Shown piece after piece: positions 1,864 to 9,285 of a stretch of DNA of 64,000 bases. The translations under genes were made by a program, and so were the position numbers. The stretch covers positions 62,001-126,000 of the forward strand of contig PMSN01000006.1 in assembly GCA_003167555.1 (NCBI GenBank), written 5' to 3'. The notes beneath the pieces are model-generated. The model worked only from the letters and a program-made list of their open reading frames with translations. It was not told the DNA's origin and searched no databases. Within the stretch, counting starts at the first letter, position 1; every line of letters begins with the position of its first letter. Source of the DNA: Spartobacteria bacterium (GTDB taxonomy: Bacteria > Verrucomicrobiota > Verrucomicrobiia > Chthoniobacterales > UBA10450).

Positions 1864-3048
1864 ATGCCGTATTATCAGAAGCTCGGTGAGATTCCGAAAA
1901 AGCATCATATCTGGTTTCATCGCAATGGGAGCGGGCCCTCCTACAAGAATGAGGGAATCGCTTACGAGCACGTCATTACGACGGAAGGCTTCAACGAAGC
2001 GTACTCGATCATTTACCATCTCCGGCCGCCGACACGTGTGCGGAACGTGGAGCTGATAAAATATTGGGCGCCGAAAAAAATCGCGGAGAGTCCGCTCCGC
2101 CATCACCACATCAAGACCGCCGAGATTCCACGGAGGGGCGATCTCTACACAGGCCGCATCCCGATGCTCTTCAACGCGGACATGACCGCTTACCGCGCGC
2201 GTCCAGAAAAAGCTTACGGTGACTTCGAATATTACAAGAACGGCGGCGCCGATGAGGTCATCTTCGTATTTCATGGCGGCGGCACGCTGGAAACGGTTTT
2301 CGGCAAGCTCCGTTATCGTGCGGAGGATTATGTCGTCATTCCGCGGGGAATTACGTATCGCCTCGTGCCCGACAAGGTGGAGGAGGAAGATTACCTGATC
2401 CTGGAATCAACCGGTCCGGTGCGGATTCCGCCACGTTATCTGAATCACGAAGGCCAAATAAAAATGGGCGCGCCCTATTCGGAGCGCGATTTCCACGCGC
2501 CTGCGGAAATGCTCACGATCGATCGCGAGGAAGACGTGGAAGTCCTGGTGAAGGACGGCCCGCGGCTCACGCGCGTCGTGCATGCGCATCATCCGTTCGA
2601 CGCGCTCGGCTGGGATGGATACCTCTATCCGTTTACTTTCAACGCCCAGGATTTCGAACCGATCACAGGCACTGTCCACCAGCCCCCGCCGATCCATCAG
2701 ACGTTTGAAGTGCGCGGCTACGTCATTTGCACGTTCGCGCCGCGTCTCCTCGATACGCACCCCGAAGCGGTGAAAATTCCGTGGGTCCACGACAACGTCG
2801 AAGCCGACGAAGTTTTGTTTTACGTCCGGGGAAATTTCGGCTCGCGACGCGGCATTGAGAGCGGCTCGATCACGCTGCATCCGCGCGGCATCCCTCACGG
2901 CCCGCATCCGGGCACGATCATGGCGAGCAAGGACGCGCTGCGCACGGAAGAGCTGGCGGTGATGTTCGACACAGCGCACACGCTCGAGCTCACCGAGGAA
3001 TCGCTCGCGCTCGACGATCCGAAGTACCCGACAAGCTGGTTGGATTAA
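1864..3048 (+). CDS. hmgA: Homogentisate 1,2-dioxygenase
   Basis: Opens the ring of homogentisate to maleylacetoacetate. This 394-residue protein is the shorter bacterial form of the cupin-fold family. The iron ligands expected from the human enzyme are present as H309 (VHDN), E316 (ADEV) and H345 (PHGP), within the characteristic run [18 protein letters not shown] good GGGAGA ribosome-binding site precedes the ATG. Maleylacetoacetate isomerase and fumarylacetoacetase, needed to finish the pathway, are not in this window. Confidence 0.95.
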
Positions 3049-3053
3049 GAAAA

Positions 3054-3683
3054 GTGATCGGGCAGAATCACGAGACAGAGTTGGAGGCGGCCGAGCGCCG
3101 GCTCAAGGCCTTGCCTCGATGCGGGGCCGCCAAGCTCGCGAGCATGGAAGGCTCCTTCCGCGATTTGCTCGAAGCGGTCGGCGAAGATCCCGAGCGCCAG
3201 GGGTTACTCAGAACGCCGAACCGCGCCGCGCGCGCTTTCGAGTTTCTCACGAACGGTTACCGGCAGAGCCTGGAGCAGGTCGTCAACGATGCGATTTTCG
3301 ATTCCGATGCGAGCGAAATTATCCTCGTGAAAGACATCGAGCTTTACTCGATGTGTGAGCACCATCTGCTCCCTTTCATTGGGAAGGCGCACGTCGCCTA
3401 TATTCCGAACGGAAAGGTCATTGGACTTTCGAAAGTGGCGCGGATTGTCGACGTCTTTGCGCGGCGTTTGCAAATCCAGGAACATCTTACGTTGCAGATC
3501 GCCGACGCGCTCATGAAGACGCTTCGCCCCAGCGGTGTCGCGGTCGTGATCGAGGCGAAACATCTTTGCATGATGATGCGGGGTGTGGAGAAACAGAACT
3601 CGGTCATGAAAACCTCCTGCCTCCTCGGTTCGTTCAAAGAGGACGCGAGGACGCGGTCGGAATTTCTTGCCCTGTTGGCCTAA
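3054..3683 (+). CDS. folE: GTP cyclohydrolase I
   Basis: Makes 7,8-dihydroneopterin triphosphate from GTP, the entry to folate and to tetrahydrobiopterin. Zinc ligands C101, H104 and C172 and the catalytic H103 are all present (motif [11 protein letters not shown]). The GTG at 3054 is 5 bases after the hmgA stop; an ATG at residue 31 is an alternative start but would cut the conserved N-terminal helix. The position between hmgA and a PTPS gene argues for a role in pterin cofactor supply to the hydroxylase at 5836-7623, rather than in folate alone. Confidence 0.95.
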
Positions 3684-3697
3684 CGAGCTGTCGCGTC

Positions 3698-4921
3698 ATG
3701 CTCCTGACGGTCAGCAAACGCCTCGAATTCTCCGCGTCGCGTCGCCTTTTCGTGAAAGGCTGGAGCGAGGCCGAAAATCTGGCGGCCTTCGGACCGGAAA
3801 CATCGGCGCGCTTCGGCACGGGGCGCAATTACGTCGCCTATTTCGTTTTCTCCGGCCGCGTCGATCCGGCGACCGGGATGTTGATGAACATCAGCGAGAT
3901 CAAGGAGCGGGTGGGCCACGTCTTGCGCGACGGTTTCGACCACAAATTCTTGAACGAGAACAATCCTTCCTTCGCGGCCATGCCACCGACCGCGGAGAAC
4001 ATCGCCCGCCAGCTTTTTCTGGATGCCGCGCCTCTTTTTCGCGACAGCAGCGCTGAACTTGTGGCGTGTCATTTGTCGGAATCGCAAGAGCGCAGCGCGA
4101 CTTATTTTGGGACCGGAATTTCGGAGGCGAACTACTGGTTCGAATTTTCCGCCGCCCGCCAGACGATGTCGCCGCGGCTGACGCCCGGGGAAAATCAAAA
4201 GCTGTTTGGCGTCGCCGCCTCGCTCTTCGGCCACGGTCATAACTATCGCGCCCGGCTGACGTTTCGAAGCGATGACGGCGCCGGCGAAGGACCGATCATG
4301 AAACACGAGGCGATCCATCGCGAGATCGAATCGCTACGCAGCGAACTCGATCACAAGAATCTCAATCGCGAAGTGCCTGGCCTAACGAATCAACCGATGA
4401 CGACGGAAAATCTCGCCCGCTACATTCACGAGCGCGTCCGCGAGACGTGGCCCCTTCATCGAGTTCGCTTGCATGAGCGCGCCGATTTTTTTGCCGAATA
4501 TTGGCCGGAAGGAAATCATTTCCTTGGGTTGCAGCTTCCCTTCGGCGCCGCGCACCGTTTACACAGCGAGAAACTGTCCGCGGAAGAAAACACGGCGCTC
4601 TACGGCAAGTGCAATAATCCGCTCGGCCACGGTCACCTTTATCTGACGGAAGCGACGATCGGCGGCGCCTTCGATGAACGGAGCGGGACGCTCTGGGATT
4701 TCGAAGCTCTTCAGGCCGGAATCGCCGAGGCGCTGGAACCCTGGCAGAACAAACACCTGAACCTCGAAATGGAGGAATTTCGCGAAAACCCCTCGACCGG
4801 CGAAAACATCGTGCAGGCGCTCTGGCCGCGGTTCGACTCGCGTCTGGGCGGACGGCTCGTTCGCCTGCGACTCTGGGAAACGGCGAACAATCGTTTTACC
4901 TTGCGGAAAGTTCCGCTGTAG
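3698..4921 (+). CDS. Triple-domain 6-pyruvoyl-tetrahydropterin synthase fusion
   Basis: A 407-residue protein made of three tandem PTPS/QueD-type T-fold domains (roughly 1-135, 140-265 and 270-407). The usual enzyme has one domain of about 120-150 residues. Domain 3 keeps the zinc ligands H286, H311 and H313, the catalytic C305 (LYGKCNNP) and the pterin anchor E394, but its Asp-His pair is replaced by Q350-N351. Domains 1 and 2 keep Asp-His (D81-H82, D218-H219) but have lost zinc and Cys residues: R15 and TGR in domain 1, R154 and A173 in domain 2. The longer frame starts further upstream inside folE; I chose the ATG at 3698, 15 bases after folE. Likely step: dihydroneopterin triphosphate to 6-pyruvoyl-tetrahydropterin in BH4 synthesis. 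A QueD-like role is the alternative. Confidence 0.85.
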   Translation: MLLTVSKRLEFSASRRLFVKGWSEAENLAAFGPETSARFGTGRNYVAYFVFSGRVDPATGMLMNISEIKERVGHVLRDGFDHKFLNENNPSFAAMPPTAENIARQLFLDAAPLFRDSSAELVACHLSESQERSATYFGTGISEANYWFEFSAARQTMSPRLTPGENQKLFGVAASLFGHGHNYRARLTFRSDDGAGEGPIMKHEAIHREIESLRSELDHKNLNREVPGLTNQPMTTENLARYIHERVRETWPLHRVRLHERADFFAEYWPEGNHFLGLQLPFGAAHRLHSEKLSAEENTALYGKCNNPLGHGHLYLTEATIGGAFDERSGTLWDFEALQAGIAEALEPWQNKHLNLEMEEFRENPSTGENIVQALWPRFDSRLGGRLVRLRLWETANNRFTLRKVPL

Positions 4922-4975: not shown

Positions 4976-5014
4976 GGCGTTGGACGTTGGGCGTTCGGCG
5001 TTGGACGTTTTCCC
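4976..5014. repeat. GTTGGACGTTGGGCGTT-type direct repeat
   Basis: Near-repeated units GGCGTTGGACGTT and GGCGTTCGGCGTTGGACG sit immediately upstream of the SDR start. The same family, on the opposite strand, occurs at about 29,501-29,522 and 31,197-31,218, which marks it as a dispersed element. Confidence 0.5.
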
Positions 5015-5021
5015 ATTCCAA

Positions 5022-5714
5022 ATGAAACGTTATCTCATCACGGGCGCCAGTCGCGGCATCGGGCGCGCGATTGCGGAAAAACTGGCGGGCGCCGGGCACA
5101 CTTTGCTTTTGCACGGCCGCGATCGGGACGCGCTCGCGAAGACGTGCCGGGCGGTGGAAGCAAAGACCGGGCTGGCCATTTCGCTTTGCTACGATCTGCG
5201 CGACGCCGGAGCCGTGGAAAAAATGATCGACGAGATCGGCCCGAAGCCGCTCGACGCTTTGATCAATAACGCCGGCGTCGCCCTAGTAAAACCGCTCGAC
5301 CAGATCACGCTCCAGGAGTGGCAGACAATTTTCGCGGTCAACGTCACCGCGCCATTTCTCCTCACGCAGCGGCTTTTGCCGATGATGACGAGCGGCGCGA
5401 GCATCGTGAACATCCTCTCAGTCGCGGCCAAGACCGGCTTCCCGAGCTGGAGCGCCTATTGTATGAGCAAATTCGCGCTCGAAGGATTTTCGCAATCAGT
5501 CCGCGAAGAGGTGCGCTCGCGCGGGATTCGCGTGCTCAATATTTACCCCGCCGCCACGAACACGGAAATCTGGAATGCGGTCGAAGGCGAATGGCCGCGC
5601 GAGCAGATGATGTTGCCGGAAGAAATCGGTGACGCCGTCGCCTACGCGCTCTCGCGTCCGGCGGAAGTCGCGGTCGAGAACATCGACCTCACTAATCTGA
5701 CAGGGCGGTTGTGA
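5022..5714 (+). CDS. Short-chain dehydrogenase/reductase, candidate sepiapterin reductase
   Basis: A classical SDR of 230 residues: TGASRGIG nucleotide-binding loop at 7-14, NNAG at 82-85, and catalytic S133, Y146 and K150 (SAYCMSK). The frame extends 14 codons upstream through a dispersed repeat, so I chose the ATG at 5022. The class alone does not fix the substrate. Its place directly after GTP cyclohydrolase and PTPS, next to a pterin-dependent hydroxylase, makes 6-pyruvoyl-tetrahydropterin/sepiapterin reduction, the last step of BH4 synthesis, the best inference. A general 3-oxoacyl or sugar reductase cannot be excluded. Confidence 0.8.
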   Translation: MKRYLITGASRGIGRAIAEKLAGAGHTLLLHGRDRDALAKTCRAVEAKTGLAISLCYDLRDAGAVEKMIDEIGPKPLDALINNAGVALVKPLDQITLQEWQTIFAVNVTAPFLLTQRLLPMMTSGASIVNILSVAAKTGFPSWSAYCMSKFALEGFSQSVREEVRSRGIRVLNIYPAATNTEIWNAVEGEWPREQMMLPEEIGDAVAYALSRPAEVAVENIDLTNLTGRL

Positions 5715-5835: not shown

Positions 5836-7623
5836 CTAACGCGTGTGACCCGCCGTCTCCACATTCGTCTTGTGATAAGTCACAAGCCGGAAGCCCCATT
5901 CGATGAGCGTGGCGTTGTCTTTATCGATCGTTTTCCGCCCATTCAAAAATGTCATGATCTGCTGCTTGAGCGCGTTCTGCTGGCCGGTCTCGTCGAGAAT
6001 TTCGAAGATTTCCATCGAGAGCAACCAGTCGTCGGCATGCTCCTTCTGCTGGGTCTCCCAGATTTCTCCGAGCCGTTCGTAGCCGATCTTGCGCTCACGA
6101 ATGTCGCGGACCTGCGCGTAAAGATTCTCCAATCTCTTGCGCTTCGCATCCGAGGGCGACTTGATTGTGCGTTCGCGCGGAACCAGCGCAACCAGGTTGT
6201 AGGCATCGTTGTCGGCCGCGCCGTTGAAGACGGAAACGACCCGCGAGCCGACCGCCATATCGAAATTACCCCACGCCGGTTCAAAGAGAATGCGATCGCC
6301 GAAGCTGACGCGGCAGTTGGTGAAAGTAATGAGCAGCAGTTTGCCATCGCGCCGGAGAATATTTTCGACGCGACCGCTGACGATCACTCCGCTCGCAAAC
6401 TCCACGTTTGCTTCCCGGCCGCTCGTAATTCCGAGCGTGCCAAGCTCTTCATCCGTGAGCGTCTCCAGAGATTTCGCAGTCGATTTCCAATTGCCAATCG
6501 GCGCGCCAAATCCTTCCGCATGATAATCGCGTCCGTGTCCCGGCAATTCCTTGTTCCGAAACGCGAGCGCGCTCGGGCCGGTCGTACGCATGTAAATCGG
6601 CTCGCCGCCGTCAGTAATCACCTCCGTGAAAACACCGGAGACTTGTAGGCCGGAAGAATACTCACAAGTCGTCGTGTTCTTGCACTCGATCGCCTTGTTG
6701 ATTCCCGCCAGACCGCCGACGCGGAAGGCCATCTTGCTCGCGAATTCCTCCAGCACGTCGGAGAGCTGCTTGAAATCGCGCGTCACGAAAAGCTGCGGCT
6801 GTTTCGTGGTGATATCGAACGGCATGTTCTGCGCGTCGATCGAATACGGAATTTTCTTCACGTGCGGCTCGAGGCAACTGACCGACTCGCCGATCGAAGA
6901 AAGCAAACCCGCGCCGTAAATTTTCGGTTTGTCGAGCGGCCCAATCAAACCGTACTCGACCGTCCACCAATGCAGGCGCGAGAGCAGCGCCATCTCGGAG
7001 GGGTCGCCCAGATTCTTTTGCCGCTCTTCCACGAGCTTCGTCGCCTTGTCGAGTTCTTCGGCATTGGGGTTTTGCTGCTCCTTTAGAATCGAGAGATGCC
7101 GGATCGCTTCGTAAACCTCGAAGTCTTTCTTCGACGACATCGCTTTCGCGCCGACTTCGCCGAAGCGCTGCAAATAATCCGCATACTCGCTGTCGACAAT
7201 GATCGGTGCGTGTCCGGCGGCTTCGTGCACGATGTCGGGCGCCGGCGTGTATTCGATGTGATTGATCTGGCGCATGTCGCACGCGATGACGAGGACGCGA
7301 TACGCCTGGAACTCCATGAACGCTGCGGGCGGAATGAAGCCATCCACCGCCACGCCGCCCCAGCCGATCTTGCCGAGGATTTCGTTCATCTCCTCGATCC
7401 GCGGAATGCGATCGAACGAAATCCCCGTATCGAGCAACCCCTGGAAGTAAAGTTTGTGCGCGTACTCGCGCAGGAAAAAAATGTTCTGCCGCATGATGAA
7501 ACGCCAGACGGCGTGATCGACGGACGTGTATTCGTCGTAGCGCTGGTCGACGGCGAATTGGAGCAAATGCTTCGGAAGCGCGGCGACGGATTTATTATTC
7601 ATCGGGACAGGATTGGATTTCAT
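5836..7623 (-). CDS. Aromatic amino acid hydroxylase (phenylalanine 4-monooxygenase, long form)
   Basis: Iron- and tetrahydrobiopterin-dependent hydroxylase, most likely Phe to Tyr. The catalytic domain fills about residues 30-310 and shows the iron triad H133 and H138 (DIVHEAAGH) and E223 (TVEYGL). The protein has 595 residues, roughly twice the Pseudomonas PhhA length, with a C-terminal extension of about 270 residues that resembles no domain I can name. It carries no N-terminal ACT domain. It converges on the BH4 genes and completes a local route Phe, Tyr, homogentisate, maleylacetoacetate, except for the transaminase. Pterin carbinolamine dehydratase and dihydropteridine reductase were not found nearby. 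Confidence 0.9.
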   Translation of the reverse strand: MKSNPVPMNNKSVAALPKHLLQFAVDQRYDEYTSVDHAVWRFIMRQNIFFLREYAHKLYFQGLLDTGISFDRIPRIEEMNEILGKIGWGGVAVDGFIPPAAFMEFQAYRVLVIACDMRQINHIEYTPAPDIVHEAAGHAPIIVDSEYADYLQRFGEVGAKAMSSKKDFEVYEAIRHLSILKEQQNPNAEELDKATKLVEERQKNLGDPSEMALLSRLHWWTVEYGLIGPLDKPKIYGAGLLSSIGESVSCLEPHVKKIPYSIDAQNMPFDITTKQPQLFVTRDFKQLSDVLEEFASKMAFRVGGLAGINKAIECKNTTTCEYSSGLQVSGVFTEVITDGGEPIYMRTTGPSALAFRNKELPGHGRDYHAEGFGAPIGNWKSTAKSLETLTDEELGTLGITSGREANVEFASGVIVSGRVENILRRDGKLLLITFTNCRVSFGDRILFEPAWGNFDMAVGSRVVSVFNGAADNDAYNLVALVPRERTIKSPSDAKRKRLENLYAQVRDIRERKIGYERLGEIWETQQKEHADDWLLSMEIFEILDETGQQNALKQQIMTFLNGRKTIDKDNATLIEWGFRLVTYHKTNVETAGHTR

Positions 7624-7666: not shown

Positions 7667-8596
7667 TTGGAAACTCAGCAAGCGCATTCAAGTCCTACCT
7701 GTTCTTTGCCTGGTAGGGACGCCGCGCTGCGGCGTCCGCGGACAGCGCAGCGCGCTGTCCCTACCCGAACTCGTCTGGTTTGGCTGAATCTGGTCTGCCT
7801 CGACGCGCCGCTCGTGGCGCTGGCCTGGCTGGGGCTTTTTGCGCGAACGTTTCATGTCACTCTCGATGCCGGAAATTGTGCGGTGCTTTTTCTGACGGCC
7901 TGGATGATCTATCTGGCCGATCGGCTGGCGGACGCCCTGGCGCTGCCCGGCCAAGTTCCTTTCTCTCGCCGCGGAGAATTTTGTCTGACGCATCGCCGGC
8001 CCTGGAGCTGGACGCTCGCGGCGATCGCGATCGTTGACGCCGGATTGATCTGGCGAACCACGGACAGCAGAACTTTTTTCATCGGAGCTTTGGTCGGAAC
8101 GGTCGCTCTCCTCTATTTGGTCCTCAATTATTCGTTGCGCCGAATCTGGAGTTTCCTTCCCGTGAAGGAAGCCGCGATCGGATTTCTTTTTGCAGCCGGC
8201 ACATTGGTCGGGTTGCTCCCGGATTTTCCTCGGCTCAGCCCCACGTTCGTGTTCTCCGCGCTGGCGTTCGGATTTCTCTGCACGCTTAACTGTGTGAGCA
8301 TTGCCGTGTGGGAACGCGAACTGGATGTGGCCCAGGAGAAGATTTCGATTGCGACGCGGTATCCGTCCGTACGGCGGTATCTGGGAAAGATCGCGATTGC
8401 TGTGGCGCTCGCTTCATTGATCGCTGCGCTGATTCAACACGACGCGGCATCGATTTTCGGATGTGTGGGCGCGAGTGCGCTCTTGCTGGCGTTGCTTGAT
8501 TTTGTTGGTGGGGTAATTGGCCAGGATCAACGCACAGCCTTGGCCGATCTCGTGCTGCTTACGCCGCTGGTCGTGCTGATCGGCGCCGGCGCGTGA
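7667..8596 (+). CDS. UbiA-like integral membrane prenyltransferase (start uncertain)
   Basis: A polytopic membrane protein with about seven to eight hydrophobic segments. Two Asp-rich loops stand where UbiA enzymes bind the prenyl diphosphate-Mg: D85-x3-D89 (YLADRLAD) and ERELDVAQEK around 216-225. They are degenerate relative to NDxxD and DxxxD, so the enzyme class is tentative. The first ~36 residues are read from a palindromic repeat (7712-7766) after a TTG, so the true start is probably later, just ahead of the first membrane helix near residue 40. The stop overlaps the methyltransferase start by 4 bases, indicating coupling. Confidence 0.6.
   Translation: METQQAHSSPTCSLPGRDAALRRPRTAQRAVPTRTRLVWLNLVCLDAPLVALAWLGLFARTFHVTLDAGNCAVLFLTAWMIYLADRLADALALPGQVPFSRRGEFCLTHRRPWSWTLAAIAIVDAGLIWRTTDSRTFFIGALVGTVALLYLVLNYSLRRIWSFLPVKEAAIGFLFAAGTLVGLLPDFPRLSPTFVFSALAFGFLCTLNCVSIAVWERELDVAQEKISIATRYPSVRRYLGKIAIAVALASLIAALIQHDAASIFGCVGASALLLALLDFVGGVIGQDQRTALADLVLLTPLVVLIGAGA
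7712..7766. repeat. Palindromic repeat (GGTAGGGAC...GTCCCTACC)
   Basis: Outer arms GTAGGGAC/GTCCCTAC enclose two GC-rich hairpins (GACGCCGC/GCGGCGTC and GGACAGCG/CGCTGTCC). Half a copy recurs at 43,170. It lies in the apparent N-terminal coding part of the UbiA-like frame. Confidence 0.7.
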
Positions 8597-9285
8597 GCTT
8601 CGATGCCATCGCGCCGTGGTATCGATCGCTGGAGAGGATCGCCTTCGGCGATCAACTCCAGCGGTGTCGCGTGGCTTGTCTCGGAGAAATCCGCGCGCCG
8701 CGTCGCGCGCTGATTGTGGGCGAGGGGAATGGAAGGTTCCTCTGCGAGTTGCTCCGCGTGCATCCGACTGCTGAAGTGGATTGCCTCGACGCGAGCGAGG
8801 GCATGCTTCGATTGGCACGCAAACGCGTCGAACAGACATCGCCCGATCGCGCCGCGCGCGTCCGTTTCATTCACGATGACATCACGTCGTGGACGCCGCC
8901 TTCACCTCGCTACGACCTGATCGTCACGCATTTTGTTCTCGATTGTTTTCGCGAACCGGAGTTGGCCCTGATCACTAAGAAGCTCGCGACTGCGGCCACA
9001 GAGGATGCGACCTGGTTGCTCGCGGACTTCTGCATTCCCGTTGGGGGATTCGCGCGTGCGCGCGCCCGAGTGTGGCTCACCCTCATGTATGGATTCTTTC
9101 GCGCGACAGCTGGAATCGAAGCCACGGGCTTGATCGATCCCGCGCCCTTCCTCCAAGCGCATGGCTTCGCGCTTACAACGCAGCATCAATTTAAGGGTGC
9201 GATGCTGAAGTCAGAATCGTGGCGAAGGAATTCTCTGGGGAGCGCAGGCTGCCAGCCTGCCCATCTCGGCAGCTTGCCGAGATGA
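8593..9285 (+). CDS. Class I SAM-dependent methyltransferase
   Basis: A 230-residue Rossmann-fold methyltransferase with the SAM glycine loop (ALIVGEGNGRFL, about 39-50), an acidic residue after strand 2 (DCLDASEGML) and a motif-II-like HDDIT. The GTG start overlaps the membrane protein stop (GCGTGA). The two may modify the same lipid or quinone-type substrate, by analogy with UbiA/UbiE pairs. The last ~15 residues are encoded by the arm of a 27-base inverted repeat, so the tail is probably not part of the original fold. Confidence 0.75.
   Translation: MSFDAIAPWYRSLERIAFGDQLQRCRVACLGEIRAPRRALIVGEGNGRFLCELLRVHPTAEVDCLDASEGMLRLARKRVEQTSPDRAARVRFIHDDITSWTPPSPRYDLIVTHFVLDCFREPELALITKKLATAATEDATWLLADFCIPVGGFARARARVWLTLMYGFFRATAGIEATGLIDPAPFLQAHGFALTTQHQFKGAMLKSESWRRNSLGSAGCQPAHLGSLPR

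What the first reader, a model, noticed from the sequence alone, without database searches (positions are those of the whole stretch)
3698..4921. Three fused PTPS domains with the active site divided between repeats
Seen: domain 3 has the zinc His triad, catalytic Cys and pterin Glu but lacks Asp-His, while domains 1 and 2 keep Asp-His and have lost zinc and Cys residues. Known: PTPS is a hexamer made of trimers and its triad is formed across subunits, Cys from one and Asp-His from the next. Inference: this protein is a covalent pseudo-trimer with one working site built from domain 3 plus domain 1 or 2, and the remaining pockets have decayed. That is a clear case of division of labour after internal duplication.
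Basis: partly seen in the sequence, partly recalled or inferred. Interest (0 to 1): 0.8.

Follow-up and report, generated by a model that had tools for sequence, protein, structure and literature searches.

The report
Fused enzyme with a shared active site
A soil bacterium makes a cofactor-building enzyme as three joined copies, of which one holds the metal and the reactive cysteine and the other two hold the remaining catalytic pair; related two-gene systems in other bacteria have divided the same site in the same direction, so evolution has repeatedly kept one kind of site and let its mirror-image partner go.

Summary
ORF 3698-4921 (+) is three PTPS (PF01242) domains. Across 36 homologues, domain 3 alone keeps the zinc triad H286/H311/H313 and C305, and never has Asp-His. 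Domains 1 and 2 keep D81-H82 and D218-H219, with invariant Arg in place of zinc His. The triple form was found only in one Chthoniobacterales family, in a BH4/phenylalanine cluster (HPPD-HGD-FolE-PTPS3-SDR-PAH).

Three points change the interpretation. (1) The protein looks like alpha-alpha-beta: domains 1 and 2 resemble the first, domain 3 the second, of two adjacent PTPS genes beside FolE in Acidobacteriota and a Dadabacteria-like phylum. (2) The same division occurs there, in separate genes and in two-domain fusions. In 76 pairs alpha always keeps Asp-His and beta keeps Cys (75 readable); alpha lost Cys in 33, beta lost His in 28. (3) The dead pockets are not rotting: dN/dS is about 0.1 in each domain and both pterin-site Glu persist.

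So one pocket type (beta-Cys with alpha-Asp-His) is kept and its reciprocal lost. Whether Asp-His reaches C305 within one chain or, as I think likelier, from the partner chain of a dimer is not shown; no coordinates or activity data were available.

The parts
3698..4921 (+). Triple-domain PTPS (alpha-alpha-beta), 407 aa
   Evidence: translation; 3 PF01242 stretches; AF2 model pLDDT 94.7, pTM 0.92
3698..4114 (+). Domain 1, alpha type: Asp-His donor, no Cys, no zinc triad
   Evidence: conservation; tree and HMM scores
3938..3943 (+). D81-H82, Asp-His pair of domain 1, 36/36
4118..4510 (+). Domain 2, probably alpha type (long branch): Asp-His kept, Cys and first zinc His lost
4349..4354 (+). D218-H219, Asp-His pair of domain 2 (D 35/36, H 36/36)
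4514..4912 (+). Domain 3, beta type: zinc triad, Cys and pterin Glu, no Asp-His
   Evidence: matches rat/human PTPS E 2e-22
4553..4555 (+). H286, zinc ligand
   Evidence: 36/36
4610..4636 (+). C305-NNPLG-H311-G-H313: catalytic Cys and two zinc His; CxxxxxHGH signature of PTPS-II (biopterin) enzymes
   Evidence: 36/36; signature as defined in PMC5041015
4745..4750 (+). Q350-N351, where Asp-His stands in ordinary PTPS; never Asp-His in the family
4877..4879 (+). E394, pterin-site Glu (rat E133 equivalent)
   Evidence: 36/36
3054..3683 (+). FolE, GTP cyclohydrolase I: first step of BH4 synthesis
   Evidence: NCBIfam above cut-off; adjacent in the relatives with enough flank
4980..5714 (+). SDR, presumed sepiapterin-reductase-like last step
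   Evidence: adh_short; conserved neighbour; the specific function is inference
5836..7623 (-). Aromatic amino acid (phenylalanine) hydroxylase, presumed BH4 user
   Evidence: NCBIfam PRK14056 790 bits; PF00351
718..1851 (+). 4-hydroxyphenylpyruvate dioxygenase
   Evidence: TIGR01263 above cut-off
1864..3048 (+). Homogentisate dioxygenase-like (short form)
   Evidence: HgmA_N/C; far under the hmgA cut-off

Best explanation
The protein is a PTPS-II enzyme (7,8-dihydroneopterin triphosphate to 6-pyruvoyl-tetrahydropterin, second step of BH4 synthesis) whose subunits are fused as alpha-alpha-beta. Domain 3 (beta) binds zinc and the pterin and carries the proton-abstracting C305. An alpha domain supplies the Asp-His that activates C305. 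Each beta pocket with an alpha Asp-His is a complete site; the reciprocal pocket (alpha Cys with beta Asp-His) has been given up on both sides at once. The three domains probably close into one pseudo-trimer ring. I think two chains then stack head to head, so that C305 of one chain meets the Asp-His of an alpha domain of the other chain (two sites per dimer), most likely D81-H82 of domain 1. BH4 made this way serves the phenylalanine hydroxylase in the same cluster. Shown: residue pattern, conservation, operon, recurrence in other lineages, high-confidence three-T-fold model. Inferred: oligomer, trans geometry (about 60%), choice of domain 1 over domain 2 (about 55%), catalytic activity.
For: Residue split conserved in 36 homologues. 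Operon FolE-PTPS3-SDR with HPPD/HGD and PAH conserved. PTPS-II signature in domain 3 only (for the definition). Alpha/beta assignment with the motif columns removed: tree and HMM differences, domain 1 +8 to +20 bits alpha, domain 2 +6 to +16 alpha, domain 3 +10 to +22 beta, each 9/9. Natural complementation elsewhere: 76 adjacent pairs, alpha Asp-His intact 76/76, beta Cys intact in 75 readable, alpha Cys lost in 33, beta His lost in 28, both in 25; parsimony 4 and 6 changes. 26 single-gene PTPS of Verrucomicrobiota all complete. Pairs also sit beside FolE, often SDR. Trans geometry: Cys A42 and Asp-His B88/B89 in rat PTPS (recalled from memory); 'intersubunit catalytic triad' is in the title of Burgisser 1995 (reference list); two chains per rat entry with D3 symmetry puts A and B in opposite trimers. 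Domain 1 as donor: its DHKFLN loop is the more constrained, and one homologue (L015) has D218N with the rest intact.
Against: No activity, mass or structure data. No model coordinates, so no distance was measured. Two-domain alpha-beta fusions with short linkers cannot fill trimer rings of three, so at least in them the assembly must differ from ordinary PTPS. Both Asp-His pairs of the triple are conserved, which one donor alone does not explain. Alpha/beta clade support is modest (93 and 80 SH-aLRT, no bootstrap), domain 2 is a long branch, and rat PTPS itself scores 10 bits higher with the beta HMM, so domain 3 may simply be the most canonical domain. Pair-level tests have too few independent events for significance.
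Confidence: 0.72

Rival explanations
1. In-cis version: the Asp-His of domain 1 or 2 of the same chain completes the C305 site inside one covalent trimer; a monomer would be active.
For: Short linkers make the domains ring neighbours; two-domain fusions with even rings could pair neighbours in the same ring; bimodular QueF has its site between the two T-folds of one chain (PMC5372742).
Against: In rat PTPS the donor B is, as far as I can reconstruct, in the opposite trimer (memory). An odd ring of two unfused subunit types cannot complement every beta site in the ring, whereas alpha3 stacked on beta3 can.
Confidence: 0.3
2. Degenerate or repurposed protein: a structural or regulatory pterin-binding scaffold without PTPS chemistry, the real PTPS activity coming from the other PTPS-family gene of the genome (C7:133933-134280).
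For: Two of three pockets lack catalytic residues; pterin-site Glu remain in all domains.
Against: The domain-3 zinc/Cys set is invariant in 36 homologues and alpha Asp-His is kept with it; the only other PTPS-family gene is a single 131-aa QueD-like one outside this cluster.
Confidence: 0.1
3. Separate internal duplication: the triple arose from one PTPS gene inside Chthoniobacterales and its likeness to the alpha/beta pairs is convergence of the same constraint.
For: Long branches of the three domains, modest support for the alpha and beta clades; 2-4% identity differences only.
Against: Motif columns were removed, yet all nine triples sort the same way by tree, identity and HMM; gene order alpha then beta matches domain order.
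Confidence: 0.25

Closest known systems
6-pyruvoyl-tetrahydropterin synthase (rat/human PTPS, PTPS-II of COG0720)
   Same: Fold, zinc triad, CxxxxxHGH signature, pterin Glu, pathway neighbours
   Different: Known enzymes are homo-hexamers of one domain with every residue in every subunit; here three fused domains share the residues
Bimodular QueF (V. cholerae/E. coli)
   Same: Fused T-fold domains, catalytic Cys and anchoring Glu kept in the C-terminal module and another motif in the N-terminal module, after duplication (PMC5372742)
   Different: Different reaction and family; two modules; division of NADPH-binding motif versus Cys/Glu, not of a Cys-Asp-His triad plus zinc site
Urate oxidase
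   Same: Tandem T-fold domains in one chain; model pairs of domains align to it at Z about 11, rmsd 4.4
   Different: Two domains, no metal, different chemistry; resemblance is of fold only
QueD (6-carboxytetrahydropterin synthase)
   Same: Same Pfam family and fold
   Different: CxxxHGH spacing and queuosine pathway; this genome has a separate QueD-like gene

Membership tests
PTPS (PF01242) | Sequence profile match above the curated cut-off | tested here: met
   209 bits against 22.4, three stretches
PTPS-II (biopterin-type PTPS) | CxxxxxHGH signature | tested here: met
   C305-NNPLG-HGH in domain 3, 36/36; definition PMC5041015. Not present in domains 1 and 2
PTPS-II (biopterin-type PTPS) | Complete Cys-Asp-His triad and zinc His triad within one subunit sequence | tested here: not met
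   Met by the chain as a whole but by no single domain
PTPS-II (biopterin-type PTPS) | BH4 pathway context (FolE, SDR, aromatic hydroxylase) | tested here: met
PTPS-II (biopterin-type PTPS) | T-fold | tested here: met
   human PTPS Z 12.4, 1.7 A over 136 residues; pLDDT 94.7
PTPS-II (biopterin-type PTPS) | Dimer-of-trimers assembly | not testable with these tools
   No multimer prediction or coordinates
PTPS-II (biopterin-type PTPS) | PTPS activity | not testable with these tools
   Needs an enzyme assay
QueD (PTPS-I) | CxxxHGH signature | tested here: not met
   Spacing in domain 3 is CxxxxxHGH

The most novel reading that the evidence does not exclude
A large, undescribed class of two-component (alpha/beta) PTPS exists in at least Acidobacteriota and a Dadabacteria-like phylum. 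It forms hetero-oligomers in which one of two reciprocal active sites per alpha/beta contact has been abandoned repeatedly and always in the same direction, and the Chthoniobacterales protein is its covalent alpha-alpha-beta end form.
Probability: 0.55. Interest if true: 0.75.

Novelty: new variant of a known kind. Interest (0 to 1): 0.62.

Why it matters
It gives a natural series from two complete paralogues, through loss on one side only (8 pairs alpha, 3 pairs beta), to loss on both sides, then fusion, in an enzyme whose site is built between subunits. That makes the origin of obligate hetero-oligomers and of pseudo-symmetric fused enzymes directly testable by mutation and mixing. It also means that PTPS genes annotated as inactive because they lack the Cys or the His may be the obligate halves of one enzyme.

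Tried and rejected
Measuring C305 to Asp-His distances in the model: structure prediction returns no coordinates. Structural comparison with single PDB chains cannot show inter-subunit sites. Literature for the exact subunit origin of Asp88/His89: Nar 1994 is not held; searches found only general descriptions. No paper on fused or two-gene PTPS was found in the held library, which is not proof of absence. Independent-pairs test of the alpha/beta losses: all informative pairs go the same way, but too few for significance. Idea that the dead pockets are decaying: rejected by dN/dS. Idea of a frameshift or strand artefact: rejected, open frames in dozens of genomes. Aromatic hydroxylase as general user of the alpha/beta product: rejected, 23 of 26 such genomes show no PF00351.

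Full report
WHAT IS THERE. Window 3698-4921 (+) encodes 407 aa. Pfam finds three PTPS domains; NCBIfam finds QueD/6PTHBS-type matches. The ATG at 3698 lies 14 bases after the FolE stop; the frame is open further upstream, but that stretch overlaps FolE. The window lies in a 4.2-Mb, 98%-complete genome whose named relatives are Verrucomicrobia/Chthoniobacterales soil MAGs such as Candidatus Udaeobacter. The only other PTPS-family gene is a single 131-aa one, QueD-like.

THE RESIDUES. The motifs were read in 36 homologues, three of them truncated at the N-terminus. Domain 3: H286, C305, H311, H313, E369, E394 invariant; Asp-His position Q/R/E/N then D/N. Domain 1: D81-H82 invariant, zinc His replaced (R15 and R43 invariant), no Cys, E128 invariant. 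Domain 2: D218 (35/36), H219 invariant, first zinc His replaced by invariant R154, H179 and H181 kept, no Cys, E260 invariant. The spacing C305-x5-HGH is the signature given for PTPS-II, the biopterin enzymes (PMC5041015).

CONTEXT. The order HPPD - HGD-like - FolE - PTPS3 - SDR, with PAH on the other strand, recurs in nearly all relatives that have enough flank. This is a BH4 synthesis set beside phenylalanine/tyrosine degradation. Within the order about 60 genomes have the form, all in the window's family; the phylum-wide sample has none outside that family. Other classes of the phylum have single-domain PTPS that are complete at all motif positions (26 of 26).

NOT DECAYING. Pairwise dN against dS for close relatives gives dN 0.06-0.25 and dS of about 0.9 or more in every domain (dS near saturation, so ratios are rough). 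The catalytically empty domains are kept under purifying selection.

FOLD. AlphaFold2 with 30 homologues gives pLDDT 94.7 and pTM 0.92: three T-folds with 3-4-residue linkers between the last strand of one and the first strand of the next. Single domains match human PTPS (Z 12.4, 1.7 A); neighbouring pairs of domains match urate oxidase, a tandem T-fold protein (Z about 11, 4.4 A). This fits ring neighbours and a closed ring of three, but closure was not seen directly, as no coordinates are returned.

THE WIDER PATTERN. A homology search also gave pairs of adjacent, separate PTPS genes beside FolE and SDR in HR37, Dadabacteria and Terriglobia records. A search of the phyla of two of these genomes found such pairs in most of 58 genomes of the one and in several dozen of 247 of the other. 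Pairs were fetched and aligned. I call the upstream unit alpha and the downstream one beta. Of 78 loci with two units I set aside L155 (a different, degenerate second copy) and L175 (truncated). In the 76 left, alpha Asp-His is intact in 76, beta Cys in all 75 readable. Alpha Cys is lost in 33 (S, A, N, H, R, K, L); beta His in 28 (Y, Q, G, C). Both are lost in 25, only alpha Cys in 8, only beta His in 3, neither in 40. Five (L136-L140) are two-domain fusions, all with both losses. The pairs lie beside FolE in almost all cases with flank.

HISTORY. With the six motif columns removed, a tree of 128 domains puts alpha units together with triple domains 1 and 2 (SH-aLRT 93) and beta units together with triple domain 3 (80). 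Alpha and beta HMMs without these columns agree for all nine triples tested. So the window protein is best read as alpha-alpha-beta. On a concatenated tree the losses need 4 (alpha Cys) and 6 (beta His) changes; none is in the opposite direction. Support is modest and branches are long, so the number of origins is approximate.

MECHANISM. In a D3 hexamer any contact between a subunit of one trimer and one of the other is mapped onto itself by a two-fold axis. If A's Cys meets B's Asp-His, B's Cys must meet A's Asp-His: sites come in reciprocal pairs (geometry, not a tool result). For an alpha/beta contact the two sites are beta-Cys/alpha-DH and alpha-Cys/beta-DH. The observed losses remove both halves of the second and never touch the first. 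This is what one expects if a single pocket of the two is given up. For the fused triple as a head-to-head dimer, a 3-3' contact would be dead, which leaves 3-1' (with 2-2') or 3-2' (with 1-1'). I favour 3-1' because the loop around D81-H82 is the more constrained and because L015 has D218N with everything else intact. That the triad of PTPS crosses the trimer-trimer interface rests on my recollection of Nar 1994 and Ploom 1999 (chains A and B), on two chains per rat entry and on D3 symmetry (PMC7546909); I could not read those papers. The in-cis arrangement stays possible, and the two-domain fusions with short linkers show that trimer rings cannot be the rule for every member.

KNOWN OR NEW. 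PTPS, its zinc site and its intersubunit triad are known. Division of a T-fold site after duplication and fusion is known for bimodular QueF (PMC5372742). I found no report of fused or two-component PTPS in the held library. I file it as a new variant of a known kind.

Noticed in passing
G590-G593, G718, G822, G843 and others: 23 of 26 genomes sampled among those with alpha/beta PTPS pairs have no aromatic amino acid hydroxylase (PF00351), so what uses the tetrahydropterin there is unknown.
   Followed up: partly
L155:370-2500: A complete PTPS followed by a second copy that lacks Cys and Asp-His (Y and H-Y) but keeps the zinc His; not an alpha/beta pair.
   Followed up: no
L136-L140: Two-domain alpha-beta PTPS fusions with short linkers in genomes of the Terriglobia record's phylum; their ring cannot be an ordinary trimer, so the assembly should be unusual.
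   Followed up: partly
L045:4896-6096: An apparent RNase H-like domain fused to a QueD-like PTPS domain in a Coriobacteriales MAG.
   Followed up: no
window 1864-3048 (+): Homogentisate dioxygenase-like protein of 394 aa that scores only 63.8 bits against a cut-off of 510.75 for hmgA; a divergent short form conserved in the cluster.
   Followed up: no
window 7667-9285 (+): A prenyltransferase-like membrane protein and a methyltransferase downstream of PAH are conserved in the closest relatives (L005-L007).
   Followed up: no
L178, L184, L190 and L189, L196-L204, L212: Intermediate states: pairs in which only the beta His (D-Q) or only the alpha Cys has been lost.
   Followed up: yes
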